Of a DNA stretch of 64,000 nucleotides, positions 1,487 to 51,115 are shown piece by piece. The notes beneath the pieces were generated by a model. The model did not search any database, was not told the DNA's origin, and saw nothing but the letters and a program-made list of their open reading frames with translations. Made by a program: the position numbers and the translations under genes. Numbering within the stretch: position 1 is the first letter of the stretch; the number at the start of each line of letters is the position of its first letter. Origin of the DNA: Medicago truncatula (lineage: Eukaryota > Streptophyta > Magnoliopsida > Fabales > Fabaceae). The stretch covers positions 3,606,001 to 3,670,000 of the forward strand of contig NC_053043.1 in assembly GCF_003473485.1 (NCBI RefSeq). The letters are read 5' to 3'.

Positions 1487-1530
1487 GGGTAAAACACTTT
1501 CTTTTTTTTAACAATACGGGGTAAAACACT
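1487..1530 (-). repeat. Tail-only retroinsertion scar (20-nt insert)
   Basis: The direct repeat GGGTAAAACACT occurs at 1487-1498 and again at 1519-1530. Between them lie 20 nt that on the minus strand read roughly TATTGTTAAAAAAAA followed by GAA. A short A tract bounded by a target-site-like duplication is what an extremely 5'-truncated LINE insertion would leave. Replication slippage is the alternative. Confidence 0.5.
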
Positions 1531-1549
1531 ATTAACTTTTTTTTTAATA

Positions 1550-1717
1550 CTCCCTCCGTCTCACAATTATTGTCTCTTTAGCATTTTTTCTTTTTCTCAA
1601 AATAATTGTCACTAACTACAATTAATAAGGGTGTTTTAGTAAATGCAACTATTTTTACATCATTTTCTTAATAATCGTGCACAAACTTTAAACACCAATA
1701 TTGTGAGACGGAGGGAG
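1550..1717. mobile_element. Stowaway-type MITE (Tc1/Mariner), 168 bp
   Basis: The left end reads CTCCCTCCGTCTCACAATTA and the right end is its near-perfect inverse, ending GAGACGGAGGGAG. CTCCCTCCGT is the hallmark Stowaway terminus. The left flank has the expected TA, while the right flank is CA, so one copy of the duplication has mutated. No coding capacity. Confidence 0.85.
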
Positions 1718-1921
1718 CAATTAACAAGAGAAAACCCAAATGAAGTCTTACATAAGTTTAGAGGAGATAGATATGGCAAGTGGTGGCAGAGTAGGGGAGA
1801 GAGGGAGGATGGGAGAAGAATGACCCAGACAATAACTGGGAAAGATGGGACCAGCCAACTAGAAGACAAAATCTCAGATGTAGATATTTTTTTTAAGGTT
1901 CACCGTTGGTCCTTTTCTTAA

Positions 1922-2491
1922 GGCTTTGTTTGGATGACCAAAGAAAGTGAAAGGAAAGAATGGGAAAGGAAAGATTGTTTAAGGAAAGAAAAAGAGTAGA
2001 AAGTGAGAGGATTGTTTTGGTTGTTTGATACAAAAGAAAGTGGAGTAGAAAATTGAAGGAAAGAAAAACATACATTTGGTAATTGACATAAATACCCTTA
2101 AACAAAAATAGTAGTATTTTATTATATATAAACAATAAATAATTGTTTACAGTTCAAAGTAAAAATAAAATGGAACAGAACAATCATATTACAAAAAAAG
2201 TTAAGAGGGGGAATTATTTTCCTTAAAAAGAAAGGGGGGAATTAATTAAAAAAAAGAAAAAGTTAGCTGTGATTGAAGAAAAAAAAATATAAAAGTTTGG
2301 TGGGGCATTTTAGATATTTTAAACAAAACACATGTGTTCCTCAACCTCTCCGTTTCTATGTGGGTGGAAAGTTTTCCAACGTGGGTTCCACCTATATTCT
2401 TTCTTTCTTTCTGGTTCTAAACAACTGAAAGTCTTTCTTTCATTTATCTTTCTTTCCTTATCACAATCTTTTCTTTGAAACAAACATAGCC
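1922..2491. mobile_element. PIF/Harbinger (Tourist-like) MITE, 570 bp
   Basis: The ends are inverted: GGCTTTGTTTGGA on the left against GGCTATGTTTGTTTC on the complement of the right. The element is bounded by a TAA trinucleotide on both sides (1919-1921 and 2492-2494), the TWA target duplication typical of PIF/Harbinger. Subterminal purine-rich AAAGGAAAG motifs on the left mirror CTTTCTTTC motifs on the right. No transposase remnant seen. Confidence 0.7.
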
Positions 2492-3038
2492 TAAGGGTCT
2501 ATATTAGGGCTCTGAACCAGATTTCTGGCAAAATATGTTTGGATATGGTCAAACCGGGTTTTAATGCAGTTTTGAACGAGATTTTTATTTTAATTCAAAC
2601 TTAATTTCGTGTGTGTTTGGTTCTGCGGTGATGAAAATTGATTTTTACTGAATTGATTTTGATAGAATTGATTTTGTCTAAAAGTGAGTTGAACTTAATT
2701 GAATTATGTTTGGATATATTAAAATAAAAGTGATTTTTATTAATTCATGTTGTTTGGATAGTTTGAATTAAAATTGATTTTTGGTGTATAATTACCAAAA
2801 TGGGTATGTTTAATTAAAATTAGATTTCTTTTCTATTTTATAGCATAAATTAAATGTATGTTGTATTAATAAATTTAATCATTTTTTTGACAAAAAATTA
2901 AATTTTACCATTTATAAACTATTTTGAAAAAATCAATCATTGGTTATTAATTTAATTATTTAATTGATTTTGTTTTCTTTTGAAAGGTTATATCATAATT
3001 TTTTTAAATATAACAAATACAAATATTTAAAGGCAATA
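2492..3038. other. Intergenic; one end of a possible split PIF-like element
   Basis: From about 2608 the sequence runs GTGTGTTTGGTTCTGCGGTG followed by ATTGATTTT-type motifs. This resembles a Tourist-like terminus, and a similar sequence occurs in CCT3 intron 1 near 54.66 kb. The facing end may be the inverted GTTTGG-type sequence near 7.65 kb, separated by later insertions. No gene. Confidence 0.35.
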
Positions 3039-3056
3039 ACATAATGTCAATATTTA

Positions 3057-3637
3057 AATACAAATATTTAAACCTTTCTGCAAGTGACTCAATCATGTTT
3101 TCTCTTTTCCCTTTCTCTCTTGTGAGCCGTCACCAAAATCCTAGTTTCTTCTCCTTCATCCATCAAAGATGGGTGATTTATGGTCAACTTTTGACTCAAA
3201 ATCACCCCTCTAACTTGTTTTTCTCTTTTCCTTTTCTTGAAATAAGTGATTTTCATATCTATTTCGTTTTTTATTTTGTGATTTCATCGTCTTCGTGCGA
3301 CGTTGGTTTGTTCGTCGTCTTTGTGCGACGTTGTTTGTTTGGTTTGTTTCTCTCAGATATTTGATCCGTTCAAATTGCTATATCAACTTCGATCCAGTGC
3401 AGATCCAATCAATGACTTTGACGTCATCCATGTTGCAGATCCGAAGACATGGTTATTCCGGAGATTTAAATATAGTCATATGTGTAGGCATTTGTACTTT
3501 GCCGTTTTATGCTATTAACATGGATGTTGTGAGCCTGTTCACAGATTCATCCTTTTTGTTTTTAGCGAATTTGCATTATATCGAAGTACTATATAAATTT
3601 GAATGAATGAATATTTTTTATTTTGTCAAAAAAAAAA
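3057..3637 (+). mobile_element. Poly(A)-tailed non-LTR retroinsertion, 581 bp
   Basis: A perfect 18-bp direct repeat, ACATAATGTCAATATTTA, flanks this segment at 3039-3056 and 3638-3655. The segment ends with an A tract preceded by TTTTGTC. Long target duplications plus a 3' A tail identify target-primed reverse transcription. The body has short open frames only and no recognisable reverse transcriptase, so it is either a 5'-truncated LINE 3' end or a retrocopy of an untranslated RNA. Confidence 0.7.
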
Positions 3638-5110
3638 ACATAATGTCAATATTTATAAAATAATTAGAGCATAGCGTTGGTGCACTAATAGAAACATGGC
3701 TTAATTGTTATTTTCGTCCCTTAACTATTTATTTAGTATCGCTTTGGTCCCTTGATTAAAATTTGTTATGTTTTGGTATTTTAAGTTTATCTCTGTTACA
3801 TATTTTAGTCCTTTCCGTTAAATTTAATTCAAAAACGTTAGGGTTTAATAAAAATGTTAGGGTTTAATAAAAAAATATTAACTGCTATACACGTGTCATT
3901 ATTTCATTGGATCTGAAAATTTTATATTTTTTCCACAGCTTCATCATCATCATCATTAAAACCTTCATCATACAACTTTTCTCATGTAACAAAAAAAAAA
4001 TCTACTATTTTCTTCTTATCACTACATCATCATCATCATCATCTTCACTCTCTCATCACTACCTTTAAAAACAACACCTAATATCATCATACCCATAAAT
4101 CTTCTAACAACAACACATAACATTGAGTTAAAATTCTGCATAAATCTTCATAAATCCAAACCTTCATCGTAGGAACATTGAGAGTTGTTTCCCTCAATAA
4201 AATCCAGCAACAAACAACAATTGATTAAATCCATAAGAAAATCCTCAAACCCAAATGAAATTGATTGAATCCATGAATCAACAACAACAACAACAATTGA
4301 ATCCATGAATCAACACAACACATTTCCGAGATCCTCGTCATAGCTGACAGTTTAGAAGGAGATTTTCAATTTACAGTAGCAAGGAATTTGGAATTAGAAT
4401 TAGGAGTGGATCTCTGTGTTTCTTCTTAACATCTATCATCTTTTTTCTTCATTGAATATGGAATTGATGAATGGAAGAGGAAGAAGAGTTGGGATAAAAG
4501 AATTGGAATGATATGATTTTTTGGTGAAGGACAATCAGAGAAAAAGAGTTAGGAGAGATTTGCTGCACTTTTGCTTGAATATTAGGTGTTGAATGATTTA
4601 GGGATTTGCTGCAAAAACATGATGAAGGAAGAAGCAAAGATCCAAGATAAAAATTCATAAATGGGCATCGAAATAATGGTTTTTTGAGAGAAGAAGATGA
4701 TGAAGATGAAGTAGATAAAATAGTCACAAGGAAGGGAGGGGGTTTGAATTGTGACCCTTTAAAAATTAAACCTGTAACTTAAAATTGATTCTCAAGTTGA
4801 AACTTGGAATGGTTAAGTTAAAAGCAGACTTTCAGAACGTTCTGATGTCTCAGTGCAAAAACAGTTTAATAAAGTAAATGTGTTTGTGTGTGTTGTGTAT
4901 GCAGTAAGTGAAGAGTATAGGGAAGAGAGAATCAACACACAGAGAATTTATAGTGGTTCCCCCAATGTGGGTTAGTCCACTCCTCACAATCTTGTGAGAG
5001 TTTCCACTATGATGCTTGAGATAACCTCTCAAATCCCGCACCTTACAATATGCGTTCACCTGAACACTTACAACTTTGTATTCTCTAAGCCTCAGCAAGC
5101 TTGCACCTTG

Positions 5111-5366
5111 TTGCTAAGTTAACCACTTAGACTTTTACAAATTCAGCTCAAACTAACATTTTAGTACCCCTAAAGCTAGATGAGATTTGTTTTTCTTCTT
5201 GCTAAGTTATCTACTTAGACTTTTACTCCTTCTGCTCAAACTAACACTTTAGTACCCCTAAAGCTAGATGAGACTTTCTTTTCTTCTTGCTAAGTTACCC
5301 ACTTAGACTTTTGCACCTTTAGCTCAAACTAACACTTTAGTACCCCTAAAGCTAGATGAGACTTTA
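5111..5366. repeat. Three tandem copies of an 88-bp unit
   Basis: TTGCTAAGTT begins at 5111, 5199 and 5287, exactly 88 bp apart. Each unit contains ACTTAGACTTTT and TTTAGTACCCCTAAAGCTAG. The last copy fades near 5366. Confidence 0.85.
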
Positions 5367-5399
5367 CAAGATGTTTGAAGCTTGAATGATTGAAATCAG

Positions 5400-5731
5400 A
5401 CAAGAGAAGAAAGGAAGGAAGTGTTATCTTTAAAGAGATAACAGAAAGAATTGATTTACACTACAAGAAGATATTAAAGAATATTCAGTGATGATCAATT
5501 CAGATGCTAAAGCTTCAAAACAACCCCAAGTTGTTTTTCTTGTATGCTTTGCAATTTGTGTGGAGTTAATGTTTGAGAATCAAACAGAGGAGGAAGAAGA
5601 AGTTATCTTTAAAAGAGATAACAAAGAGTATTGATGTGCACTAAGGAAACAAGAGCCTTAGAGATTGATCAATTTCAATTTGCAAGAGCTTCAAACAATC
5701 TTTGTTGTTTTCTTGTATGTTTTGCAATGGT
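5400..5731. repeat. Diverged tandem duplication, about 177-bp period
   Basis: Two related segments (about 5400-5554 and 5577-5731) share GTTATCTTTAAAGAGATAAC-like palindromes, a TGATCAATT block and a TTTTCTTGTATG.TTTGCAAT block in the same order. Confidence 0.6.
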
Positions 5732-7302
5732 GCAAGTTTTGCTAAGGCTTTGATCTCTATTTATAGAGTCTTTGAGCTCATATAGCCGTTGTAAGGTGCC
5801 TAATGGTGTTATGCCACGTGTCCTGGGTCCCACAAGCTTTTACTTGAAAATCTGGGTGAACATTCTGACCATCATAATGTTGTTGTGTTCCCAGGATGAA
5901 CATCAGAATGTTGTTGTGTTCTTCATCAGAATGTTGATATTCATGATGTTCTTCATCTAGGTTCATCAATGATGAATGTCTGATGAGTTTCTAGGTTTAT
6001 CCAATACGTGATATGAGATTTGTTGGGCTTTATCCACCAAAAAGTAACTTCTCCATATCCATCAAAAGTTGATGGATAAAGTATGATAAAGTTATCAAAT
6101 CTGTCTTGGACTTGGTGCAGGAGAGAGATAGTGGATCTGCAATCTTCAGGCCCATGCTTTTAGAAGATTTGCTTGATTTTGTTCAGAGTACATGTTATCT
6201 CTGATGCAAGTTCTCCTTTTGCTACCTTTTTTTCTTTCTACCAACTACACTGTTCATAGCTGGAAGCATGTGCAGAAGAGAACATTCTGACCATCAGAAT
6301 GTTTCATTTGCTCTTACTTTAGGATGATTTGTAAGACTACTTTTGATGTAATCAATCCCAATAGTAGAGACATAACTGAAGTGCAGTAAAGTAACCTCTA
6401 GGATAATATCCTTTATGGAATATTCCTAGAACTTCAAGTGTTCATAGTCTTGAATGAACCTTGAAGACCTTTTTGACACTTTTGTTTGTCCAAGCCTTTA
6501 TTGCTGATACATTCATGCAATTGTACTTTCCTAGACATATATTTATGTCACGTTGTAGTTTGCATGTTCTTCATGTTCTTGATGATTCTGGGTTTGCTTA
6601 TGAACAACCTTCTGAATTATCATCAGAACGTTCTGATCAACTTCACTGATCAACTTTCTGAACTTCAGAATTAGTTCGTGGATTCAATGTCCTTTGATTT
6701 CATGTATCTTGGTATTATTCAAACCTTGTTCATGTCTTAGTAAAACACTCAAGAGCACAAGTTAAATAACAAAGAATTAATCAAAGTTCATTTAATCATT
6801 AATCATTAAAGTTTATTATCTTTAAAATTAATTAGGGATTTTTCCTCAACAGAAGATGATAAAGAATATGAGGGAGGGAGGAAGATGAACCATTTTTGTT
6901 GAATTTAAAATTTCTGGTTTTTTAATTTTTGATTTTTAAATTTCTGGGTTTAGGTGATGAAGGTGTGATGAAGATGAGAAAGGAAGAAGATGAAGAAATG
7001 AGAAAAAAAAAAGTTGGTGATGATTTCCTATAAGATAAAATAGGCTTTCATGATCCAACGGCCCTCTTTTAAGAAAAAAGATCAAATGGTTAAAATTAAT
7101 TTTTTTAATATGGTTTACGGTGGACCACCTAAATCTTGGTCCACTTAAGACATTTGAGGTTAATATATTAACAAAAGGGACCAAATTGTGTAACGAAAAT
7201 TAACTTAAAATATCAAAACGGAATAAATTTTAATTAAGGAATCAAAGCGATACTAATTAAAATTAATTAAGGAACGAAAATAGCAATTAAGCATAGAAAC
7301 AT

Positions 7303-8189
7303 TTTGTTATGTTATTAAAAAAAAAAAAAAAATTGTTATCATTGCCGGTAAAGAGAAAAGGGTATATGCGTTAAATAAAACCCAGTTCTAATCATCTAAA
7401 AAAAACCATTTAGAATGAAAAGAAAAGTAATAACTGAAAATATACAAGGACAGTAAGGGAAGAAGCCAGCCCCCACACAGGCAAAATCGATTTACACTGC
7501 CGCAGAAGCTACTATTCCTAACTTCTATTGGAATCCGATTTTAAAAGCCAGAATTGATTTTTCAAAAAACACCCAAACAAATATTTGGTAAAGCAAACTC
7601 ACTTTTACACTTGCAAACGTACGTCTACCATAACGTGCAACCAAACGGCCACTTCATTGCAAACGTTCCATATTGTTAAACGCACGTCACAATAATAGAC
7701 ACGGTAGAAATAGGGTATATGATTACAAACTTATAAACAAGGAATATGATTAGAAACTTCATGCTCTCATATCACGTAGCTATAGAGTTACGAAACACCG
7801 TTAAAAAACAAATCACATACTTGTAAAAAATTCACAAGCAACTCAAAATTATGTGATGGTTGAATTGTATCAAATAGTCACTTCACTATAAAGAATCATA
7901 TAGGTACAAATTCACAAGCAACTTAAAAAATTCACAAACAATCGTAACCAAATGTTAGAAGAAGGAGAAGAGATTGAATAATGTGGTGAACTATAGGCCT
8001 TTGGACTCATGTGATTCAGACTCAATTTGAGGATAGCTTGAGAATCTGAGTCATTGTTAGGATTACTAGTTCCATATAAGTGGTTGTTATTCTCATCCTC
8101 TTCAAACTATGCAAAGTGGAGGTTCATTTCCTTGATATTTTCTTCTCATTCTTTCTCCGCGTTCACAACTTCTTTTATCCTTGTAGGTT
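7303..8189. other. Intergenic, no gene seen
   Basis: AT-rich DNA with a long A tract near 7318-7333. Around 7490-7660 is an inverted PIF-like end (complement begins GGCCGTTTGGTTG). No coding feature. Confidence 0.5.
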
Positions 8190-8923
8190 GATAATTTAAT
8201 CGTCTTTGGATATTCGTGGATAAAATATGTCATGAGTACATGACAGATACCTCAATGGATATCTATGGATAAAATAAACGAATATTTTAATTATCTGTAA
8301 TTTAAATGATGCAAATATGGATTGGATGATATTTACATTCGTAGATATTTGAATCCACTATTAAAATAATTAAATTATATGAATAATCTTACCGTGATTT
8401 CAATTTCAATCAAAAAACCCTAACACTATACAATATTATTACATAACACTTCAATTCTTCTCTAAAATAAGGAACTTTAATTATGTTTTTGTCGAATCAA
8501 ATAACTTTGTTTTGTTAAATGTGATTAACTTTATTTATGTTTTTCTCAAGGAACATTGTTTTTGTTAAATGTGATTAATTTTTTTGGGTTATGAATGAAA
8601 AGTATGTATATTATTATATTTTTGTAAAAATAAGAAAATGAATGGGTTGAACTTTGTTGTTAAATTTTAGGTAATTATAGCTTAAAAAAATAAGTAATTA
8701 TAAAAAAAAAGTTACAAAAATGATTTTTTTTTAAAAGTGTCATCCATGAATATTTGTATATACATGTGGGCAGGGGGTACCTCAAATTCCCATGAATTAC
8801 ACATTTAACCAATATATGCACGGATATACTGAGGGCATGTTTATCATATTTATCTATCGGGACGGATACAAATATCATATTATCCACACCCACGAATATC
8901 CATTTACATCCTAATTTATCCTC
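8190..8923. mobile_element. Degraded TIR element (TGGATATTCGTGG family)
   Basis: TTGGATATTCGTGGATAAAATAT near 8206 is mirrored by ATCCACACCCACGAATATCC near 8882-8901, so the ends are inverted copies. Target duplications are not clear. The interior holds a 55-bp-scale tandem duplication near 8465-8585 with the shared block TTTGTTAAATGTGATTAA. Confidence 0.4.
8668..8702 (+). repeat. Tail-only retroinsertion scar (11-nt insert)
   Basis: TAGGTAATTATA (8668-8679) and TAAGTAATTATA (8691-8702) flank GCTTAAAAAAA. One mismatch separates the two flanks. Confidence 0.35.
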
Positions 8924-21673: not shown

Positions 21674-23352
21674 TTACAAGTTTCCTTCCTTCTTCATCTT
21701 GACAATTTCTGCAGTTTTTCCGGTTTCGTCAATGTTATCTTCTTTCATGCGGTCCAAGACCCCATCCACTTCTTTATCAGCCCGTACATAAGCCTTGAGC
21801 AGGGAATGATACATGTGTCTATTCTTTTGGAATTTTTTCAATAACCTCACCAAAGCTTCTGCGTCTTCAACAGAAGCATTATCACCAATCCAACTATATA
21901 TACTAGAAATCACCCTGTGGTTTGGCTTCCGTTTTTTATTTTCCGGATACAAACAGACGGCAGTTTTCAAGCACTCCAATGCTTTCTCCATCTCACCTTT
22001 GAGCAAGTATCGATCTGCGACTAGAATCCAAGAGCTTGTATCAGTGTACTTTCTCTTCTTCCATATATCTTGAAGTATGGCTTCTGCTTTCTCGGGAAAA
22101 TCTTTTTCAGAGTACCCAACGACTACCACATTTGGAACTCCATAATCATAGCAGTTACCAGAGAATTCCCATTCCTTGAGTATTTTGTCAGCTTCATCAA
22201 ACTCCTCAAGCTTTACCAGCGATTCTAACATGGTTATAAAATCCCTGTTTAGGCACCTCTTGCAAGCACTTTTTTCCATATCCCATAGTCTTAGAACCTC
22301 ATTCTTTTTTCCAAGACGAGCGTAAAGAGAGATAAGATGGTTGTAACCCTCTCCATCTTTGTCATCCAGCCTCTTCTCACATTTCCTCAGAGCATCAATT
22401 GCCTCACTTGAAAGTTCTGCTTTTATATAGAAATTGGCCACGACAGAATACGTGTTCCAGTCCATCACAATGTGTGGTTGACTCTCCATCTCTTTCAATA
22501 TTGCGTTCATTCCATCAATGTCTGACCTCACACCATAAGAACCTATACAGATTCTGTAGCTAAAGTTGTCCGGCAAAACATGGTTTTCCTTCATCTCATT
22601 AAACACATCAGAAACTTTCTCATGCTGTCCTATATTTGTGTACAGACACATAATGTTATTATAAGTTAGAGACGACAAAGCAAACCCCAACTCCTTCATT
22701 TTCTTCAAATGGGATAGAGACTTATCGACTTGACGCTGACGTACATAGCAATTCAAAAGAGCACCGTGTGTCTTCTCATTTCTTTCTATATCCTTCAAGC
22801 TATTAAAATAGGTTTCTGCAGCATAAAAACCGTGAACCCTTCCAGTAAGATCCAAATGCACCGCGTGTTCAACTGGAGAAAATATGCACACACCAATCTT
22901 ATTCATCCACTCGGACACCTGCACCCATTATTAGGCAACAGAGTTTAAGACTAAAAAACCAAATCAGATTAGACCCTGTTTGGATAAATAAATAGCTTAA
23001 TTTGTAGCTTATAACATCAGCGCTTTTCAATTATCATATATAAGTGCTTATTAAACACAAATCAAAAGCTGCATTAAGCTAAAATATAGAATGAAGAGAA
23101 ATTGAAAACCTGGAGAGCTTGTGTGAATCTACTACGCTTGCGAAGATCACGAACAATGCGTTGAAGCTCACCAACACTGACCTTGTTACCCTTATAGACC
23201 CAATCATCGAGCTGAGGAGCAACGCTTGTGGTTTGATTTCCGAGTGGACTGATTACGGAGTAGAGACTCGGTTTCTTGGTCTTGCTGGTGTAGTATGATC
23301 TGTTTCTGCTTCCAATGTTGGTTGCAATGCTTCGAAGAAGCTTCCAATTCAT
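21674..23352 (-). CDS. P-class pentatricopeptide repeat protein, probably mitochondrial
   Basis: Two exons, 23110-23352 and 21674-22918 on the minus strand, join at CAG|GTTTTC...GCAG|GTGTCC in frame to 495 aa. The N-terminus (MNWKLLRSIATNIGSRNRSYY) is rich in Arg and Ser and lacks acids, like a mitochondrial presequence. From about residue 85 onward helical repeats follow, for example EKTHGALLNCYVRQRQVDKS, SLTYNNIMCLYTNIGQHEKV and DGEGYNHLISLYARLGKKNE. There is no E or DYW tail. The intron after codon 81 is typical of the At2g20710/At4g21705-like group. Function is RNA binding in an organelle by family; the target RNA is unknown. The 191-bp intron contains a MITE fragment with GTTTGGATAAATAAATAGC. 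Confidence 0.9.
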
Positions 23353-39355: not shown

Positions 39356-40903
39356 ATGAAGCCTCAGAATCTGAATCAAATAGCGAAGCTCTCTCAATTT
39401 CAAATCATAAACCCTAATCCCCAATTGTTAAATCAAAACCTTAAACTTCTTTCAAAATCACACGATAATGTCAAAGCTTTCTTCAACCTCTGCAATCAAA
39501 TGCTCTCTTGTTCTTCTTCCCACAATCACTACACCTTCACCCACGCGCTCAAAGCATGTTGTTCCTATCATGCGCACGCCAAAGGTCTTGAAATCCACGC
39601 GCGTCTCATCAAATCCGGTCACATCTTCGATGGCTTCATCAAAAACACTTTACTCTATTTTTACCTCTCCTCAAACGACGTCGTTTCAGCAACGCGCGTT
39701 TTCAAATCAATTCCTTCACCCGACGTAGTTTCATGGACTTCACTAATCTCAGGTCTCTCAAAATGTGGTTTTGAAACTGAAGCTATTGAAGCTTTCTCCT
39801 CAATAAATGTGAAGCCTAATGCATTAACTCTCGTAAGTGCGATTTCAGCTTGTTCGAGCATTGGAGCGATTAAATTTGGTAAAGCGATTCATGCTTACGG
39901 GTTGAAATCGTTGATGATTGATGGGAATATTGTTTTTTATAATGCTGCATTGGATTTGTATGCAAAATGTGGGTTTTTTAGTAATGCACGGAATGTGTTT
40001 GTGAAAATGTCTAAAAGGGATGTTATTTCTTGGACTACATTGTTAATGGCTTATGCACGTGGAGGACAATGTGGTGAGGCTGTTGAGGTTTTTAAACAAA
40101 TGATTGTAAGTGGAGAAGCTGAGCCAAATGAGTCGACGGTTGTTACCGTGTTATCGGCTTGTGCTTCTATCGGGTCTTTGAGTTTGGGGTGTTGGGTGCA
40201 TGATTATATTGAGAAAAGGATTGATCTTGATGTTGATGGTAATATTGGAAATGCATTGGTTAACATGTATGTTAAGTGTGGTGATATGAAAATGGGGTTG
40301 AAGGTTTTTAACATGGTTGTTCATAAAGATGTTATTTCTTGGGGTACTGTTATTTGTGGATTGGCTATGAATGGGTATGGTAAACAAGTTGTGCAGATGT
40401 TTTCACATATGCTGGTTCATGGGGTTTTACCTGATGATGTAACGTTTATTGGTTTGTTGTCTGCGTGTAGCCACGTTGGTTTGGTTAGTGAGGGAATGAT
40501 GTTCTTTAAAGCTATGAGAGATAGTTATGGCATTGTGCCACAAATGAGTCATTATGGTTGCATGGTTGATATGTATGGACGTGCTAGTTTGTTTGAGGAA
40601 GCTGTGGCTTTCCTTAAAGGTATGCCTGTTGAAGCGGAGGGACCTATTTGGAGTGCTCTTCTTCAGGCTTGTAAAACTCATGGTAATGAAGAGATGTCTG
40701 AATGGATTAGGGGACAAATCCATGATAAAAATGTTGGCGTTGGTACTCTTGCTTTGTTATCCAATATTTATGCTAGTTCTGAAAGGTGGGATGATGCTAA
40801 TAATGTTCGGAAAATAATGAGAGGCACTGGGTTGAAGAAGGTGGCTGGATTGAGCTGGGTTGAGCCTGAGGTTAGATTGGATTCAAGTTTATGTGCGGCT
40901 TAG
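39356..40903 (+). CDS. PLS-class PPR protein with E-type C-terminus
   Basis: An intronless 515-aa frame from ATG 39356. PLS-type repeats run from about residue 55 to 430, with signatures such as DVVSWTSLISGLSKCGFETE, NAALDLYAKCGFFSNARNVF, DVISWTTLLMAYARGGQCGE and GNALVNMYVKCGDMKMGLKV. The tail (PIWSALLQACKTHGNEEMSE, then LLSNIYASSERWDDANNVRK and MRGTGLKKVAGLSWVE) is the E/E+ region. There is no DYW deaminase domain, so if it takes part in C-to-U editing it would need a partner. Family knowledge places such proteins in plastids or mitochondria. The coding strand changes from C-rich to G-rich near codon 165-180. AATAAA at 41048-41053 is a likely poly(A) signal. Confidence 0.92.
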   Translation: MKPQNLNQIAKLSQFQIINPNPQLLNQNLKLLSKSHDNVKAFFNLCNQMLSCSSSHNHYTFTHALKACCSYHAHAKGLEIHARLIKSGHIFDGFIKNTLLYFYLSSNDVVSATRVFKSIPSPDVVSWTSLISGLSKCGFETEAIEAFSSINVKPNALTLVSAISACSSIGAIKFGKAIHAYGLKSLMIDGNIVFYNAALDLYAKCGFFSNARNVFVKMSKRDVISWTTLLMAYARGGQCGEAVEVFKQMIVSGEAEPNESTVVTVLSACASIGSLSLGCWVHDYIEKRIDLDVDGNIGNALVNMYVKCGDMKMGLKVFNMVVHKDVISWGTVICGLAMNGYGKQVVQMFSHMLVHGVLPDDVTFIGLLSACSHVGLVSEGMMFFKAMRDSYGIVPQMSHYGCMVDMYGRASLFEEAVAFLKGMPVEAEGPIWSALLQACKTHGNEEMSEWIRGQIHDKNVGVGTLALLSNIYASSERWDDANNVRKIMRGTGLKKVAGLSWVEPEVRLDSSLCAA

Positions 40904-41984
40904 AGGAGATTGATGAAGTTGTGTAACTCTACAGTGGTACCAATCTACAATGGAACTCTGAAGGTTGAAAGTTACATGTATCAATATATTTCTGTAGTCA
41001 GCTTATGGTAGACTTAAAATGTAAATTACTTCATTCTTGTACAAACCAATAAAATGCTTCGGTTGGCAGCAAGCAGTGCAATTTGATGACAAAAGCATAA
41101 TGCATAATTGTATATTCAACATATAGAACTAGACTTGATGGCAATGATATTCAAGAAATTATCTTTTTTGTTCTGGATTTATTGTTAAATCATGACAGAA
41201 TGTCACAAATTGACCATTCTATTGCTACAAATTATGGCCGTTTCATGGAAAATCATATTATGTGCTGGTGAAAAACCAGACAGCTGAAAATTTGAGTTTT
41301 TTTTATTTTGATGTCTTGTGTTCTACTATGTTAGTGTATCATTCTGGTGGTATGATCCTACTGCTGTTGTGGTTTTGGATTGTGTTGGTTTTGATGATTC
41401 TGTCTCCAAAATAGCAGTGAAATCGTTGTTTAAGCCATTGGAAAGAATCCAAGATTACTCGAAGAAATGTATGAAATTGGAAAGATTGTCTTGTGGCAAG
41501 CAAGGTTGATCTACTTACATCCCAGGTTTCACTTACAAAGTTAGATAGAGGGATTCCACAAGATGCAAGTGCTGGATGAACGCCCTAGTTAAGCGCAATT
41601 TTTCTATTCTTTGTTTTACACCTTTGTTTTTTACACGGTTCAACTAAAGGTCCATCTTTGGATGCTACTTCTACATTTTTTTTTGGTTTTTGAACGTTAA
41701 TAAGTATTTACCGTAGTTTTTCAGTAATTAATCTTTGTACATGTTGAGTACACTGGGTTAGGTTCTCTCTTTCTAAACAATGATAGAGTGTGATAGTTTA
41801 TGGACTAACTTGATGGATTGTGAATAGTTTAGATACCAATTTTTACATTTTTATAGTTCTGAAGCAAATAAAAGATATAGTGGTGGTACTTTGGAAACCA
41901 AATTGAATATTTACTCATTTATATCTCTTAACCCACTATTTTATTTTACTCATTTAACCAAACACTTTTCATTTTATATCACTA
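40904..41984. other. PPR 3' flank and intergenic
   Basis: The first 150 bp are probably 3' UTR. From about 41774 to 41984 is a dispersed sequence (GATAGTTTATGGACTAACTT, AAATAAAAGATATAG) related to 60.99-61.26 kb. It is the left half of the host repeat interrupted by the Helitron. Confidence 0.5.
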
Positions 41985-42013
41985 CTAGTATAGTGACCCG
42001 TGCCAAGCACGGG
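41985..42013 (-). other. Helitron 3' terminus: hairpin plus CTAG
   Basis: CCCGTGC (41997-42003) and GCACGGG (42007-42013) form a 7-bp stem with a 3-nt loop, eight bases from the terminal CTAG at 41985-41988. This matches the hairpin and CTRR end needed for Helitron termination. Confidence 0.8.
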
Positions 42014-42630
42014 GAAATAAAATACTTTTTTGATTAAATGTATAGATTTTATATTGTGTTATCTTAAAGTTATAAGTGTGGTTATAATTTAAATATGATA
42101 AGGAAAAAATATCATCTTAATTTTGTTAATTTTGTATATATTTTGAAATATCCAAACATTGCACATAACGATTAAAGTATTTAGATTTATTCTTATATTA
42201 ATTATTTGTAGTATAAGATGTACTCATTGTTAAACTTAGCATATGTAATATTTTTGCAAAAATACTCCGACGTACTGTATATTATTATTTGTTAACATAA
42301 TGTATTTTATTAATCATAAAAACTAAAAAATTTGTATTTTTTTATATAATAGAAAGTGTCAGATGTGTATACACCTAGTTTGTGAATGCAAACGTTAAAT
42401 TTTTTACGGGTGTGTATAAATATAATTTCGGCTACAGAAACGTCGATTGTTATTTGTTTTTATTTTTTACAAAACCAATGGTCTAATGTAAATATTGTAT
42501 TTTGGGGTAACAACGATGTAAAAAAAAAAGTTTCGCGTACTGTTATACCTAAAAAGTGCATCAATTAAAAGTCAATGGCAGGAGGATCTGCTTATATAGA
42601 AATTGCACATGTCTTGTAATGACCAATACG

Positions 42631-43037
42631 TAGACATGGCAACGGGGCGGACCGGAGGCGGGTTTGAGTATCCCCGTCCCCGCTTCCATGCACCCGCCCC
42701 CGTCCCCAAACCATATCGGGGGTAAAAATTGAACACCCAACCCCGCCCTCAATGGGGAAGGGTCTCCCGGCTCCACCACCACCCCCACCCGCGAAAACTT
42801 TATTTTTTATAAAATATTTAAAAAATGCATATTTTTTCATTTTTTCATAAAATTTAAGAAAGAACGTTTTCATTTTTTCTAATATATTAAAATAGGTTGG
42901 TGCTTATGGAAATAAGATTATAAAATTTAAGAAAGAAAGTTTTAAAAAGCGGGTGCTGGGCGGGGGTAAGCATCCCCCGCCCCCGCCCCTATACTAAAAC
43001 TCCAAATTTCCCCCACACCCGTACCCGCACCCGTACC
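42631..43037. mobile_element. GC-rich MITE-like element, copy 2
   Basis: TAGACATGGCAACGGGGCGG at the left corresponds to the TAGGCATGACAAC/CGGGGCGGG terminus of the element at 9902-10418. Long C-rich runs at the left (CACCCGCCCCCGTCCCC) and right (CCCCCGCCCCCGCCCC) flank an AT-rich core. The right terminus is truncated or degraded. Confidence 0.5.
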
Positions 43038-43039
43038 AA

Positions 43040-43320
43040 TGATCATACTTTTTGAAAAACTTCACGATACACAACATTTGTGGTCTCCTTGCAAACATTA
43101 TTATCTTCATCCAAAGATGCACCCAATCTCATATTAACAGTAAGCCTCAACAAATTACAATAAGCCCATATCTTTGATGAATTGATTGAGGCATCAACAA
43201 TATCCTGCCTCGTTCCTTTTCGGGCAACAGGCAATATCTACCTGAAATCACCACCTAAAACTATTAGCTTTATATGAGAGTCATTTCTATTTAAACATAT
43301 TAGCCTAAAAAATGTGGGAA
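43040..43320 (-). pseudogene. Helitron Pif1-like helicase fragment
   Basis: The minus strand encodes SHIKLIVLGGDFR, a stop, then ILPVARKGTRQDIVDASINS and SKIWAYCNLLRLTVNMRLGA. This is the motif II/III region of Pif1-type helicases as found at the C-terminal half of plant Helitron RepHel proteins (VLGGDFRQ.LPV, NMRL). Only about 90 residues survive. Its strand agrees with the Helitron orientation from the termini. Confidence 0.75.
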
Positions 43321-44065
43321 ATGCTGAATGGTGTCGTAGAGTTAGTAACTCTTAGTTTGTCCTTTACTATATCCTAAAAAAACACACCCCTCGAAAACAA
43401 CCTTCTCATCAAGGTTGGAATGTGCTAAATTTTTTAATGTGTAATAGTCTTCAAATGTATCACCCTTATCCCTATTTTTAATTAGTGAAATACTATTTTG
43501 ATTTTCACTTAAATTTGAACTCAAGATTCTTTACTCCTAGCTAGCTCCAAAACCTATTAATTCTTCTAATGTCTCTTTTGCTACTTTTCTAATATCATAT
43601 GTCATCTTGTTCCACGTATCATTTTTGCTTATATGTAGCTTCACACAACCTTCCTTCAAAATCTTTTGTAGGAAAACACTTTGGTTTTGATCCTTTAAAT
43701 GTCACCACTTGATCCTTGCATCTCAATCATTTCCTCTCATCTCCGCTCTTATCTTAACCCTTAATTACATCCATAACCAATATTATATCTTGGATAGTCA
43801 AACTCTCTCCTTGTAAAACTTTAAATTCAAACAAATATTTTTGTCATAATTCCTAATAAGAAATAAATATATTTGAGAACATGAAATCCCACTCTTGTAT
43901 GTAATAAATTTTCTTTTTATTTTCCTAAAGTAAGATTAAAAGACTACAAAAAATCTAGGATGGATTTACCCTATGCATTTATGTCCCCACGGTCATACCC
44001 TTGTTCACGCCTTTAAAACTTATCAAACACTCCTTACATGCCCATTTAGATCCCCTCCTAGAAAA

Positions 44066-44244
44066 TCTTTTTTTTTTTGCTTTCGCAACGGTTTCCGGCC
44101 CACCAAAGGTGGACGACTAATCCAGCTCATGCGTAGAGGCATGCGCACTGGCCAAGCGTTGTTCCTCGTAGAAATCAAACCCGGTATTCCCCGGATACGT
44201 CCTTGGAATGAGCTCCTTTCCACTGGAGCCCAAGCAACTTGGTT
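44066..44244 (-). mobile_element. SINE inserted in the RTE LINE, 179 bp
   Basis: TAGAAAA occurs at 44059-44065 and 44245-44251 as target duplication. On the minus strand the element starts ACCAAGTTGCTTGGGCTCCAG, holds a tRNA-like B box (GGGTTTGATTTC), then TGGGCCGGAAACCGTTGCG and an A tail. It splits the LINE endonuclease reading between ENVF and LGGDLNG. Confidence 0.85.
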
Positions 44245-44360
44245 TAGAAAAACATTTTCTCCTTGTGGTATATCTTGAATTAAACCTTTCAAATCCTTCC
44301 AAAATTTAACTTTAGAATATTCTTCCAAACCTACCTAAGGTGAGTAAACACTCATAACAT

Positions 44361-44411
44361 TAAAGATGTCTTATTTCCTTTAAAAAAAATAAAAAATAAA
44401 GATGTCTTATT
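44361..44411 (+). repeat. Tail-only retroinsertion scar (21-nt insert)
   Basis: The perfect 15-bp repeat TAAAGATGTCTTATT (44361-44375 and 44397-44411) flanks TCCTTTAAAAAAAATAAAAAA. Confidence 0.65.
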
Positions 44412-45478
44412 AAACTAAAAATTTGTGGGATACAATCAAATCTCACATCCTCTTTACATCCACAATATCATTTTTCAATTCCTTATCCACAATAATGCCT
44501 ACACCATTTCTCGATCTAACTTTTCCGGTTTATCAATGCTTAGATCTTGAACTATCTAATTATTTCGTCTTTTCACCTACCCATATAGTTTCTTGTTGGT
44601 ACATAAAATTAATCTTCATTTTAGTGATAGCGTCAACTATTTTCATATATGTTCAAGTAAGGGTGCCTTTATTCCATGTTCTAAAACAGATCATACTCTC
44701 ATTAACTAACCTCTTTACCCACACTCGTTCACAATATCCATTTAAATATCCAATATCCATTATTTATCTTTTGACAAAATATCTTTTTTAATTCTGATTT
44801 AATGCACATTAGGATTATAGAAATCAATATTTTTTTAATGATTTCTTTAATAAAAAAATCTACAATAAAAACAATAAAAATTGAAATTTCTATAAATAAA
44901 AAACTATAATAATCATTTATAAGTATAGTAGAAACTTCCACAACTAATTTTTTTCCGTTAAATTTTATATTAGCAACGACATAATATCAAATAAGTTATT
45001 TATCCCAAATTTTTTTACTTCATACTATGATTGATCCTCTTGATTCCGAGAACTTGCTTGGTTTGATATCCTAGTTTACGTGGCTGCCACTATTTTTATT
45101 TCTTCTCATAAATAAATTTTGTTGGAAATTCAGCATACGTTAGATCGCGACCGCCTACAAACCAATGATTTGCTTCAAACCGCGCGAGAAACATGGTCGA
45201 CGCTTCCTCGTTATCCATCACCATGTCAATTTATAAGAGTATAAATGCAAATAACTATTTTTAAAATGTTTCCTTAGTCAATTTGATTTATGTGTTTTGT
45301 TTCTTATATAAAGAACCAGAGATAGTATACCCATAAATTTCTTGAATTTTCCTCATAAATAGGATCAATAAGGACCGAAGGGAGTATTAAATATACCCAT
45401 CAATTTTTTGAATTTTTCTCATAAATATGACCAAGTTTATATAAGATTGATGGGTTAAGATTAACTTTTTCTTAAATA

Positions 45479-45758
45479 CTCCCTCTGTCCCTATGTGTAA
45501 GTCCTCTTTGCTTTTTTCACATTTCTTAAGAAAAGTTGTTAGTTTACTTAATGTGTCTATTTTGTGTATTAATATTACTAAATTGTCCTTCGTTTGTGTG
45601 TATATTAAATTTGACTTTTCATATTTCAAGGCAAGTTAGTAGTATTAATTAGGGTATGTTTATGAAGAAAAAAAATGTATCTAATAATTTGAAAAGGGAC
45701 TTACATTTAGGGATAAAAAGAAAATCAAATGGGTGCTTAGATATAAGGACGGAGTGAG
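45479..45758. mobile_element. Stowaway-type MITE, 280 bp
   Basis: CTCCCTCTGTCCCTATGTGTA at the left and the inverse ATATAAGGACGGAGTGAG at the right, with TA on both sides (45477-45478 and 45759-45760). A separate older half-element ends GGACCGAAGGGAGTA near 45386. Confidence 0.85.
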
Positions 45759-46590
45759 TAATTACAAACAATTAACATGAGTTTCTTGTTAGAATTAAGA
45801 TCGATGGATGCAAAAAACGAAATTTAAGAAAGAATTTTGAATTACTCATAGAATAAATTTTTCCCTATACAGTTACTCATAGAATTAAGATTTGCATCAA
45901 ATGGTAACGGAAATCAAAGTCATATATGCACTTTAAGTCGTGTCATTTACATCCATAGTTTAGTATGTTTTAGTTATCTCGAGTCCTCATTTTAAATTTA
46001 TTATGAATTCAAATTCAAATCTGAATAATAATGTATAGAATAATTATAAAATATTTCATTTATTCACTTTAATTTGACATTTTCTTCGATTGTATAAATT
46101 ATAATGAGTGTTCTTAATATACGACGTGTTTAGCAAAATGGGTTCTGGTTAATAAGTTGTTTAAGCGAGGTCGCCAGTATAAATGAGCATATTAGAGTTT
46201 CCTATATAATTTCTCCATCATTTTTTATAAGCACCTCTAATTTTTTTTTTAACATGTATTAAAAAATTGGTTTGTAAATTTAATGTGTACATTTTATACG
46301 TAAAATTTAATAATACCCTTTATATTATTTTTAAAGGAAAATACCCACTGTATCTTTAACTTTCATATTTTATTTGGGTAATGAATTCTTGCATTATTTT
46401 TGTTTAGAAAAAATAAAATAAAAAAGGGACAGCTTTGATGAAAAAAAAATGCACCTAGTTTTTTTGCAAATGAGCTCATAATTATATTTAGAGTAAAAAA
46501 ATTATTCAAGTAGAACTTATTATTAAAGAGGGATTAAGTTTCACCCAAACATTGAATCACATATACTCTAAAATAACATATGTTTAATAT

Positions 46591-47366
46591 TAAATTCCAT
46601 TTTGATAGGTACAAATCCTGTGCAACAAATTCAGATACCAGATGGTCTCAATGTGCAACCAATTCAGATACTCACCTCTGATTTGGCTGAGCAACACAGA
46701 GAGGAACAACAGAGTGACAAATATCTTGATTTACGCATTGTTGGTCATTGGAGTGATGTTGTCACTAATCTAGACTACACTCAAGGTTCCTCGTCATTGT
46801 GTGGCACAATTTCCTCAAGAATTGAGGTTTTAAACCAAACGTCGCTCATGAATTGGAGATTTTGCGGCCACATTTCTTGAAGGGTAATGATGCTAGGAAC
46901 TCTGTGCCTCAACTTTACACTGATGAAAAAGAAAGAGAGGCCGCTATCAATTATCTGAGGAACCGCACTACTGCTTCGGAAGAGCCCTACATTGAGGTGG
47001 AGTCTCGATCCACAAAGAAGAAGCAGAAGGGTTTTCGGGTTCACAATACTCGCTCCGCGGGTAGGTTACCAGATTGATTCATGAGCTTTCTATGAGTTAC
47101 TTTCCTTGTTCTTGTTCTTGTTCGTTTTCTTTTCCCCTTTGTTTGTATGCTTTTATTTTCTTGTTCTTTTTGAGTTTGGCATTTGGCCCCTGTTTTTTTG
47201 TTGCCTTTATTGTTTGAGAAGGTTTTGGTTAGGTCCCCCTTCTCCTTTTGTCCTTGTTTCTTTTTTATGTTTATATATCTAGGGTGTTGCAGTTGATTCT
47301 TCATCTGCACCCCTTTTGTTTGTTTAAAAAAAAATAAAAAATGTATTTTGATTTGTTAAAAAAAAA
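46591..47366 (+). mobile_element. Poly(A)-tailed retroinsertion with LINE ORF1-like 3' part
   Basis: ATGTTTAATAT flanks it (46580-46590 and 47367-47377), and it ends with A-rich sequence and TTGTTAAAAAAAAA. A coding-like stretch runs from about 46610 to 47077, with one apparent frame change near 46.84 kb, and ends with RSTKKKQKGFRVHNTRSAGR. Basic endings with TRS motifs occur at the end of ORF1 in some plant L1 elements. It passes directly into a T-rich 3' UTR with no ORF2. Either an internally deleted LINE or a retrocopied mRNA. Confidence 0.55.
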
Positions 47367-47475
47367 ATGTTTAATATGTTTAAGTACACATGAATGAATT
47401 ATAAATTAAAATAAAAAGCTTATCATTTTCTTTGTATGTTATACATAATATTAAATGAGCTTTGTAACAAAAAAG

Positions 47476-47510
47476 ATGTATTAATTGCTCTCAGGAAAAA
47501 AATGTATTAA
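47476..47510 (+). repeat. Tail-only retroinsertion scar (17-nt insert)
   Basis: ATGTATTAA at 47476-47484 and 47502-47510 flanks TTGCTCTCAGGAAAAAA. Confidence 0.4.
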
Positions 47511-49392
47511 AATGAGATAACGGAAAAAAGAAATGAAATGAAAGGTAGTATTATTAAAATCATTGCAAAATAAAACTTGTCAATCACTATATAATTATAA
47601 AAAGCACGAGGTATTCTTCCTTGGTCACAAGACCAAATCAATAATGTTTGAACACGAACACATAAAAAATTCTCTTTAAAATATTCAATCATCTTTTTTA
47701 TCAATTTTCTCCTTCTTATTAAAAAAATACATAAGATTTGCATCACCAACGTTACTCATAGAATACATTTTTCCCTTTGCATCATACTCTTGATACACAA
47801 GATATATACATCAAATTCAGTTTACAATAGCAAGAATTGGCAAAATTCTCAAACATGTAGCGCTGCTAATGCTGGATTCGACCTGTAAATCAAAGTTTGG
47901 CAAAATTGTTAATCAAAGTTCAGCAAACAATAGCAAGAATTATACACCCCTAACATGACAATTAAAAAAATGATTAATAATTGTCTACAAATTCATCCAT
48001 TAGATCGATTAGAATTAAAACGAAATCAATGTATATTATAATTTTTAAAAATGATTAGTAAGAAGTAAGAATGGAAGATTGTGTTGTACCGACAAAAAAA
48101 AAAGGAGATATTATCATTTCACAAATAAATCAAAACAATAAAAGAATAAGAAAACAAAACCGATTTAACAAACCAAGAAAATATTGGTTTACTGCCGCCA
48201 CTCTCAAATAAAGAAAGTAGCGTGTGTGAAAAGCATGAGTCTCAAGACGATTATTTATAGCCAAAGAAATCAAATAATCACAACATAATTAACTTTGATC
48301 GGTAGAAAATTAAAATAAATGACAAATGATTGGTTGAAATAGAAAACAATGATGCTAATATAAAAAATGACCGAGCCAACTAATGGGTATGATTATAGGC
48401 TTATTAACAATATTGATAATCATTTAAATCCCATAAAGAAAGGATAACTATTTATTGGAATTTACAAATTAGTTGGCCGGAATCAATGGAATTTGGAATA
48501 ACTTTGTTTTGCTCGATCAATAGTTTATGGACCAATTTTAATGTACTGTTCATTATACAAAGAATGTTTATATTTTTTTAAAGAAAAACTATTATCTTTT
48601 TATTAATAAACCTAAAAAAACTATATTTTAGAAAGACACATGATTAAAATAACTGAATGATTTTAGAAACATTTTCAATAGACAGTTTGTCCTTGTTCAT
48701 ATCCCTAACAAACCAAAGTTGAATGACTCGAACCATGATATTCTAATTTTCTTTCGAAGGGGAAATATCAGAAACATAATTGATTTTTTGAGCCATTTGA
48801 AGTGTAAAGAGAGATACGAAATCGAAAGAAAGAAAAATGGAGAATTGAAATTCTGATGTGAAGAAAGTGTTAGCCAACATGTCTAATTTATAGTATATTT
48901 TACAGGATAATTTCGTAAAATATTCACATTCAACTCGACAATTCATATTTAAATTTATATCTTAGTCATTAAGTAATACATATTGTTTTTTTTGTCAAGG
49001 AGTGTAATTAACTTTTTCAATCAGCCCATGACTTAAGGTTTATTTTAGCAAGTCCGTTAAATACAATTAACTGAAATCATATTTTTGATATTCTTTGTCA
49101 ATCATCCATTTATGATATTCTTTGACTAATGAACTTAATGATACCTATTTAATTCCAATTCATTTTTTGTGGTTAATTTTTAATTCCAATTAATCAGCTT
49201 CAATTCCCATTTTTTTTTCTGTCCTAAAATAAAAATAGCACATTTCAATGAAATTTATTGAAAAGAAAGAACAGTTTAATAAAATCCTTGCCTATCAGCC
49301 CATGGTTATCGTTTTTGTGAAGAAAGTGTTGGCCAATAGATCTAATTTATAATAGATTTTAGAGGACAATTAAGTAAAAATTTATTATCAAT
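47511..49392. other. AT-rich Helitron interior, nothing recognised
   Basis: No protein motif or repeat with defined ends. It may be captured or filler DNA of the Helitron. Confidence 0.4.
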
Positions 49393-49431
49393 ATGTTCGT
49401 AGCCTTTTTAAAAAAAAAAATGTTTGTAGCC
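49393..49431 (+). repeat. Tail-only retroinsertion scar (15-nt insert)
   Basis: ATGTTCGTAGCC (49393-49404) and ATGTTTGTAGCC (49420-49431) flank TTTTTAAAAAAAAAA. Confidence 0.5.
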
Positions 49432-49794
49432 GAAAATAGAAAATCAATAGGTCATAAGGTTTTTTTTTTTTTTTTTTTGTTCGGATTGCAAAGAAAGTTG
49501 CTCAATAGGTTGTTTAGTTTAGAAAATTTTAATCTGATTTTAATACCAATAAATTCCAATAACCCGTATTTATTTGGGTCAAATAAAAAAGCTACAAATC
49601 AAGAGCAAATAATATCTCTTGCAATGTTTATTCGAGAAAGTTTCAATTTGATTTATAACTAATAATAAATTCCAAAACCCATTTATTTTCGGTCAAATAA
49701 AAAGAGGAACACATCTATGATAAACTAAAAAATCAACCTATTTATTTGAGTCAAATAAAAAAGCTACACATCTATGAGAAAAATATACAATTTG

Positions 49795-50040
49795 ATAGGG
49801 TATCAATCGGTCAATGTTACAATAAAATTTTGTATTAGATAAACTATTATTAAATTTATAAAATATAGATTTTATTGCTTAATAATAATAAAAATTCACG
49901 GATTGGCAAAAAAAATCAATCTGGTAGGGTATCAATAGGTCAATATTGCCATAATATTTTGTATTAGAAAAACTATTATTAAATTTATAGATTTCATTTG
50001 TTCACAAAAAAAATCATCGATTGGCCAAAAAAATAACTTG
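49795..50040. repeat. Diverged tandem duplication, about 129-bp period
   Basis: TAGGGTATCAAT.GGTCAAT recurs at 49796 and 49925, each followed by ATTTTGTATTAGA.AAACTATT and later by CGATTGGC-like ends. It is within the Helitron. Confidence 0.6.
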
Positions 50041-50774
50041 TATAACATTATTTTTGTTTTGTTTTAAATAAACACTATTATACGGTATTGTTTTGAATAA
50101 TAAGTGTTTTTTTTCTAACATTATTAATAAAAAACAAATATTAAATTTTATATTAAAAGTGTAACTTTTGCAACTTTTTTAAGAGATTAAATGCACAATT
50201 TTTTTTTAAATTAAATTTTATATTAAAAGTATATCTTTTCCATATTTGTTTTGCAATCATTAAAATTAAAAATATTATAATAGCTCACATTATTTTTCTG
50301 AATATAAAAATGAAACAATTTTACATTTCATTAAATTCTTTCAATATCAATACTTTTAATCAAATCGTATTTTTATTATTTGACATATATCAATTATTTG
50401 ATCTCTTTGACATTAAAATATTTAAATTTTATTATTTGTTTTATTATAATACCGGAAATTAAATATTTAAATTTAAATTATTTGATTTAAATCCGTATTA
50501 TTTGAATTCAAAATGTTTGATTTTTAATTTGATATGAAATATTTGAATTAGAATTGAATTTGAATTTGAAAAACTTCCTTTTATTCATAAGCATTAAATA
50601 CAAATTTGTGAGGTTGAATGTGGTGAGAGTATTTGTGAGGATGAATGTGGTGAGAGTATTTATAAAAACTAATGAAAATGAATAGGTTGAGAGTGCCACA
50701 TGTCATATGAATAGGTTGAGAAAAACATTTCCATATAAAGCTATGAAATAGGTCCTAAATTTATATTATATAGA

Positions 50775-51115
50775 TTAGTAATTATTAGTTTAATTGTTCT
50801 CAAGAGACTAGGGTTCCTTCCTTGTCAATTAGCATGAATGGTCTAAAACATGGAACTAATATTGGAAGTATATTATACTTGTTGTTAGAATACAAGTAAC
50901 ATATTCACTATAAAATCTTAATTCGACAATTTAACCAGATACTTTTCATTTTATATCACCATTAGTAATTCGTTTGATTGTTCTCAAGAAACTCTGTTCC
51001 TTGCTTGTCAATTAGCATGAATTTAACCAGATATTAAACATGGAACTAATATTGGAAGTATAATATACTTATTAGAATACAATTAACATATTCACTAAAA
51101 AGTCTTATTCTTATA
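50775..51115. repeat. Tandem host repeat; second copy is the empty Helitron site
   Basis: TTAGTAATT..TTGTTCTCAAG begins at 50775 and again at 50962, 187 bp apart, both followed by CTTGTCAATTAGCATGAAT and AACATGGAACTAATATTGGA. The second copy is preceded by CTTTTCATTTTATATCACCA, the same sequence that ends at 41984 just before the Helitron. Confidence 0.85.

What the first reader, a model, noticed from the sequence alone, without database searches (positions are those of the whole stretch)
41985..50774. Helitron with exact ends proved by an adjacent empty-site paralogue
The sequence ending ..TTTTCATTTTATATCACTA at 41984 and the sequence beginning TTAGTAATT at 50775 join to give what is found unbroken at 50.94-50.97 kb (TTTTCATTTTATATCACCA then TTAGTAATT). 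The 8,790 bp between them start with TC and end with hairpin plus CTAG on the minus strand, were inserted between A and T with no duplication, and contain a Pif1-type helicase fragment on the same strand. Finding the target site preserved in a tandem neighbour 0.2 kb away is rare and gives base-level boundaries.
Basis: partly seen in the sequence, partly recalled or inferred. Interest (0 to 1): 0.75.

Follow-up and report, generated by a model that had tools for sequence, protein, structure and literature searches.

The report
Ordinary mosaic plant Helitron transposon
The 8.8-kb stretch is a real Helitron, a rolling-circle jumping gene that can probably no longer move on its own; its exact ends are confirmed by a neighbouring copy of the site without it and by dozens of relatives in the same genome, so it is a well-delimited but ordinary member of a known kind.

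Summary
The joined flanks (ATATCACTA|TTAGTAATT) align across the junction to a tandem neighbour that lacks the insert, far above controls; one place in the genome was found for that tandem unit. The 8,790-bp insert, read on the minus strand, starts TC, ends with a 7-bp hairpin and CTAG, lies between A and T, and carries a truncated PIF1 helicase fragment. Genome-wide the exact 14-base 3' end occurs 80 times (reversed control 0), 79 followed by T; the exact 22-base 5' end occurs 106 times, 100 preceded by A. Of 85 5' ends examined, 42 have a same-strand 3' end within 20 kb (random mean 0.18); at least 7 of these enclose a Helitron Rep domain. The interior is a mosaic: the family's 5' block, the body of a second Helitron subfamily, and helicase-region remnants. 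One internal join also exists at another locus and so predates this insertion. Verdict: a genuine non-autonomous, chimeric Helitron; new member of a known kind. In passing: a 20-unit tandem array of this family's 5' end, a phenomenon already reported for plants.

The parts
41985..50774 (-). Whole non-autonomous Helitron, 8,790 bp, inserted between A (41984) and T (50775)
50751..50774 (-). 5' terminus TCTATATAATATAAATTTAGGACC; its first 22 bases occur 106 times in the genome, 100 preceded by A
41985..41998 (-). 3' terminus GGTCACTATACTAG; 80 exact copies in the genome, 79 followed by T, 0 for the reversed pattern
41997..42013 (-). 3' hairpin, 7-bp stem and 3-nt loop; 12 nt (TCACTATACTAG) lie between it and the 3' terminus
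43046..43237 (-). truncated PIF1-like helicase fragment (64-aa frame, residues 1-46 matched); a relative with the same 3' end (L042) keeps a 457-aa frame with PIF1 and Pif1_2B domains
49316..50774 (-). 5' block (element 1-1459); over element 1-1360 about 94-97% identical to the family copies aligned
45062..49317 (-). middle block (element 1458-5713), 94-96% identical to a second Helitron subfamily: all of it at C1:2384595-2388958, element 1458-5214 inside the complete element C5:31641561-31650872, element 1484-3595 at C6:33212395-33214829; those three have about 117-120 bp more at element 2637-2642
43362..45774 (-). element 5001-7413, colinear at 93% with C5:31676332-31678807 (L040), including the join at element 5713
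41985..43119 (-). 3' block (element 7656-8790), 92-94% identical to copies L034, L035, L036
45771..45772 (-). uninterrupted A|T site (element 5003/5004); in L040 another Helitron's CTAG end abuts the homologous T (one junction seen, its 5' side not fetched)
41934..41984 (+). left part of the interrupted copy of the tandem target unit
50775..50900 (+). right part of the interrupted target unit, as far as aligned
50906..51087 (+). uninterrupted tandem copy of the target (empty-site paralogue), about 12% diverged

Best explanation
A non-autonomous, chimeric Helitron. It was mobilised in trans by a RepHel transposase of autonomous siblings with the same ends: nicking at A|TC, strand displacement up to the 3' hairpin, cut after CTAG, and insertion between A and T in one unit of a tandem duplication of roughly 190 bp that already existed. 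Shown: both termini, hairpin, A|T target without duplication, empty-site paralogue, many copies with the same ends and different interiors, Rep-bearing intervals between the same ends, mosaic interior, truncated helicase. Inferred: mobilisation in trans, arrival of the whole 8.8 kb as one unit, and the order in which the mosaic was built.
For: Empty-site alignment; one place found for the target unit; 79 of 80 exact 3' ends followed by T and 100 of 106 exact 5' ends preceded by A; 42 of 85 5' ends with a same-strand 3' end within 20 kb, random mean 0.18 and maximum 2 in 500 trials; at least 7 such intervals enclosing a same-strand Helitron_like_N (PF14214) match over its cut-off, 5 of the 7 without a stop in the matched stretch; 7 fetched copies with both ends, 7 of 7 followed by T, 5 of 7 preceded by A, 6 of 7 with an intact TC end; hairpin; PIF1 fragment; interior map. 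Tandem units differ by 12% substitutions while the nearest 5' block aligned differs by 2.2% (97.1% identity with gaps), so the duplication is probably older than the insertion.
Against: No second copy with the same 8.8-kb arrangement was found, although that search scored 40 of 2,489 candidates, so the whole unit has not been seen to move twice. The join at 49316/49317 was seen only here and could have formed after insertion. Of 7 fetched copies, two do not have A before the 5' end (L036 has lost its first 6 bases; L037 is preceded by T). 43 of 85 5' ends have no exact 3' end within 20 kb. The Rep-bearing siblings were located by position; their sequence was not fetched.
Confidence: 0.93

Rival explanations
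1. A shorter Helitron of this family inserted first, and later rearrangement here (nested insertion, recombination with another copy, deletion) brought it to 8.8 kb.
For: The join at 49316/49317 and the loss of about 117-120 bp near 48133-48138 were seen only in this copy among the loci fetched; related loci show nested or reversed Helitron 5' ends.
Against: The join at element 5713 is present at an independent locus, L040, in a colinear 2.4-kb stretch, so at least that part was assembled before insertion here.
Confidence: 0.3
2. The 8.8 kb is not one element: the two ends belong to unrelated insertions and the empty-site match is chance.
For: Little: the left-flank match is short (about 50 bp).
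Against: The left flank alone exceeds all 844 control 60-mers and the joined score is far above shuffles; both ends are of one family and occur together in other copies.
Confidence: 0.02
3. The tandem neighbour is a later copy made from an allele without the insert rather than an older duplication.
For: Cannot be excluded from one genome.
Against: 12% substitutions between the units against 2.2% to the nearest family 5' block makes the duplication the older event if rates are similar.
Confidence: 0.05

Closest known systems
Canonical plant Helitrons (Kapitonov and Jurka 2001; features recalled, paper not read)
   Same: 5' TC, 3' hairpin plus CTRR (here CTAG), A|T insertion without duplication, Rep and PIF1-like helicase domains in siblings, non-autonomous copies with varied interiors
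   Different: Nothing in the ends; the interior of this copy combines two Helitron subfamilies and a broken helicase rather than being a simple deletion derivative
Helraiser, bat Helitron (PMC4778049; passages seen)
   Same: TC and CTAG ends, 3' hairpin as termination signal, read-through model for capture of flanking DNA
   Different: Animal family, reconstructed and shown active; activity here is inferred
Plant Helitron tandem arrays (Xiong, Dooner and Du 2016; not read, known here from passages of the review PMC12628747)
   Same: Arrays with several 5' ends, as at C8:15158253-15162694
   Different: Concerns another locus of the family, not the window's element; whether that array has a single 3' end was not seen

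Membership tests
Helitron | 5' terminus TC | tested here: met
   50773-50774 minus; 106 exact 22-mers genome-wide
Helitron | 3' terminus CTRR preceded closely by a hairpin | tested here: met
   CTAG; hairpin z -5.4, 12 nt from the terminus
Helitron | insertion between A and T without target-site duplication | tested here: met
   empty-site alignment; 100 of 106 and 79 of 80
Helitron | no terminal inverted repeats | tested here: met
   the two termini are unlike; none of the 9 inverted-repeat pairs of 25 nt or more reaches the termini; the nearest pair lies at 42315 and 50596, 80% complementary
Helitron | Rep (HUH) and PIF1-like helicase in autonomous members | tested here: met
   at least 7 intervals between exact ends hold PF14214; PIF1 in L042, which has the same 3' end. 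Rep and helicase were not shown together in one intact frame.
Autonomous Helitron | intact RepHel frame in this copy | tested here: not met
   26 frames of 60 aa or more, the longest 125 aa; 10 of the 26 scanned, one PIF1 fragment found
Helitron | rolling-circle transposition activity | not testable with these tools
   needs an assay or insertional polymorphism

The most novel reading that the evidence does not exclude
The mosaic arose by end-swapping: a family-A Helitron inserted into a family-B Helitron, a deletion with 2 bp of shared sequence joined A position 1459 to B position 819, and a later transposition started at the inner A 5' end and stopped at an outer 3' end, giving A's 5' cap a new body. 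The B element at C5 carries a reversed Helitron 5' end at an A|T 22 bp from the place of the join, so nesting does occur at that spot. If general, the ends of this family act as exchangeable caps on unrelated bodies.
Probability: 0.3. Interest if true: 0.4.

Novelty: new member of a known kind. Interest (0 to 1): 0.25.

Why it matters
It gives base-exact ends and a genome-wide inventory of ends for one plant Helitron family, ties non-autonomous copies to Rep-bearing siblings with the same ends, and supplies a case in which the bodies of two subfamilies were combined. Useful for annotation and for studying how Helitrons acquire new interiors; it changes no general view.

Tried and rejected
Chance match at the empty site: rejected by 200 shuffles and by 844 control 60-mers. 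A dispersed repeat at the target that would give spurious empty sites: not supported, one place found for the unit (that search skips very common words). A captured host gene: none identified; of 10 interior frames scanned (of 26 of 60 aa or more), 8 have no Pfam match at E 0.1, one has PIF1, one has a match below its cut-off; the plus-strand frame 46826-47074 matches 54 places including itself, 21 with stops inside, so it looks repetitive. Whether the family is already named in print: searches 'Helitron, Medicago truncatula, gene capture' (5 papers), 'Helitron, Medicago truncatula' (15 of 126 listed) and 'chimeric Helitron' (1 paper) listed no paper whose title or shown abstract start describes it; none of these was opened, and no repeat database was on hand.

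Full report
What was claimed and what is there. Reading the sequence and aligning the joined flanks to the neighbour confirms this to the base. The joined alignment scores 106 against a best of 22.5 in 200 mononucleotide shuffles; with other flank lengths it has 167 matches and 23 mismatches. The weak point would be the short left flank, but alone it scores 28 against a maximum of 16 in 844 control 60-mers from elsewhere in the window. One place was found in the genome for the tandem unit (the search skips very common words), so the empty site does not look like a dispersed repeat.

Termini. On the minus strand the element begins TCTATATAATATAAATTTAGGACC and ends CCCCGTGCTTGGCACGGGTCACTATACTAG. 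The hairpin folds at -8.1 kcal/mol, z -5.4, with 0 of 200 shuffles as good. In the whole genome the 14-base 3' end occurs 80 times and the reversed control 0 times; 79 of the 80 are followed by T. The 22-base 5' end occurs 106 times, 100 of them preceded by A, again 0 for the reversed controls. Twenty of the 106 lie in one array, all preceded by A, which leaves 80 of 86 outside it. This is the A|T rule of Helitrons at base level.

Family. Of 85 5' ends examined (array collapsed to one, two unprinted ends left out), 42 have a same-strand 3' end within 20 kb, against a random mean of 0.18 and a maximum of 2 in 500 trials; two of the 42 share one 3' end, and 43 have none within 20 kb. Seven copies fetched with both ends run from 5,817 to 14,981 bp: 7 of 7 are followed by T, 5 of 7 are preceded by A; L036 has lost its first 6 bases and L037 is preceded by T. 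At least 7 of the 42 intervals hold a Helitron_like_N (Rep) match over its cut-off on the same strand, 5 of the 7 without a stop in the matched stretch; 24 of 126 Rep matches were entered, picked partly for nearness to ends, so this is a lower bound. They are candidate autonomous partners, known by position only. A relative with the same 3' end keeps a 457-aa frame with PIF1 and 2B domains (L042), of which the window copy keeps a 64-aa frame with a partial match.

Interior. In element (minus-strand) coordinates: 1-1459 is the common 5' block of the family (about 94-97% over 1-1360 in the copies aligned). 1458-5713 matches a second Helitron subfamily at 94-96%: the whole stretch at C1:2384595-2388958, and 1458-5214 of it inside the complete 9,312-bp element C5:31641561-31650872, whose own first 300 bp are only 76% like this one's. 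5001-7413 is colinear at 93% with C5:31676332-31678807. 7656-8790 is shared at 92-94% with L034, L035 and L036. The join at 5713, where C1 departs, is present in L040, so it predates insertion here. The join at 1459, with 2 shared bases, and the loss of about 117-120 bp at 2637-2642, with 6 shared bases, were not seen in other fetched loci; the three loci that cover the second place all have the extra stretch. In L040 a Helitron 3' end abuts the homologue of element position 5004, so this element shows the empty A|T site of that other insertion; the 5' side of that insertion was not fetched. No second copy of the whole arrangement was found, in a search that scored 40 of 2,489 candidates.

Age. 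The tandem target units differ by 12% substitutions (JC 0.13), while the nearest 5' block aligned differs by 2.2% (97.1% identity with gaps). The duplication is therefore probably older than the insertion. The second figure bounds the time since this copy and its nearest known relative parted; no direct source copy is known.

Mechanism. By comparison with the experimentally studied Helraiser (PMC4778049, passages seen), transposition would start at the TC end and terminate at the hairpin and CTAG; when the terminator is missed, flanking DNA is carried along. For the window element the proteins would come in trans. An economical account of the mosaic is insertion of one Helitron into another, a deletion, and renewed transposition from the inner 5' end; the B element at C5 does carry a reversed Helitron 5' end at an A|T 22 bp from the place of the join. 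This account is inference.

Verdict. Observation confirmed and interpretation supported. It is a non-autonomous chimeric Helitron, a new member of a known kind. Interest is modest: the clean empty site is handy evidence, not a new phenomenon.

Noticed in passing
L056 (G000:C8:15157900-15162900): Twenty head-to-tail units (19 spacings: one of 221 bp, 18 of 223 bp) of this family's 5' end, each starting exactly at TC and preceded by A; the innermost unit matches on to element position 538, near the end of the stretch fetched. Plant arrays with several 5' ends and a single 3' end are reported (Xiong et al. 2016, via passages of PMC12628747).
   Followed up: partly
G000:C5:22895818-22896095: Two same-strand Helitron 5' ends 255 bp apart, perhaps a two-unit version of such an array.
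   Followed up: no
L039 (near C5:31650075) and L052 (position 2242): A Helitron 5' end lies inside B-subfamily sequence, reversed in L039; a segment of about 377 bp is inverted between the two loci.
   Followed up: partly
L049:8059-9816: The 15-kb sibling at C2:30300862-30315842 contains an LTR-retrotransposon frame (reverse transcriptase, RNase H and protease domains), which explains part of its length.
   Followed up: no
window 39356-40903 and 21674-22924: Two PPR-protein frames; the first ends about 1.1 kb from the Helitron.
   Followed up: no
window 46826-47074, plus strand: A short frame of unknown family that matches 54 places in the genome, itself included; the three best others have 86-92% identity and two of them lie in B-subfamily Helitron bodies.
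   Followed up: partly
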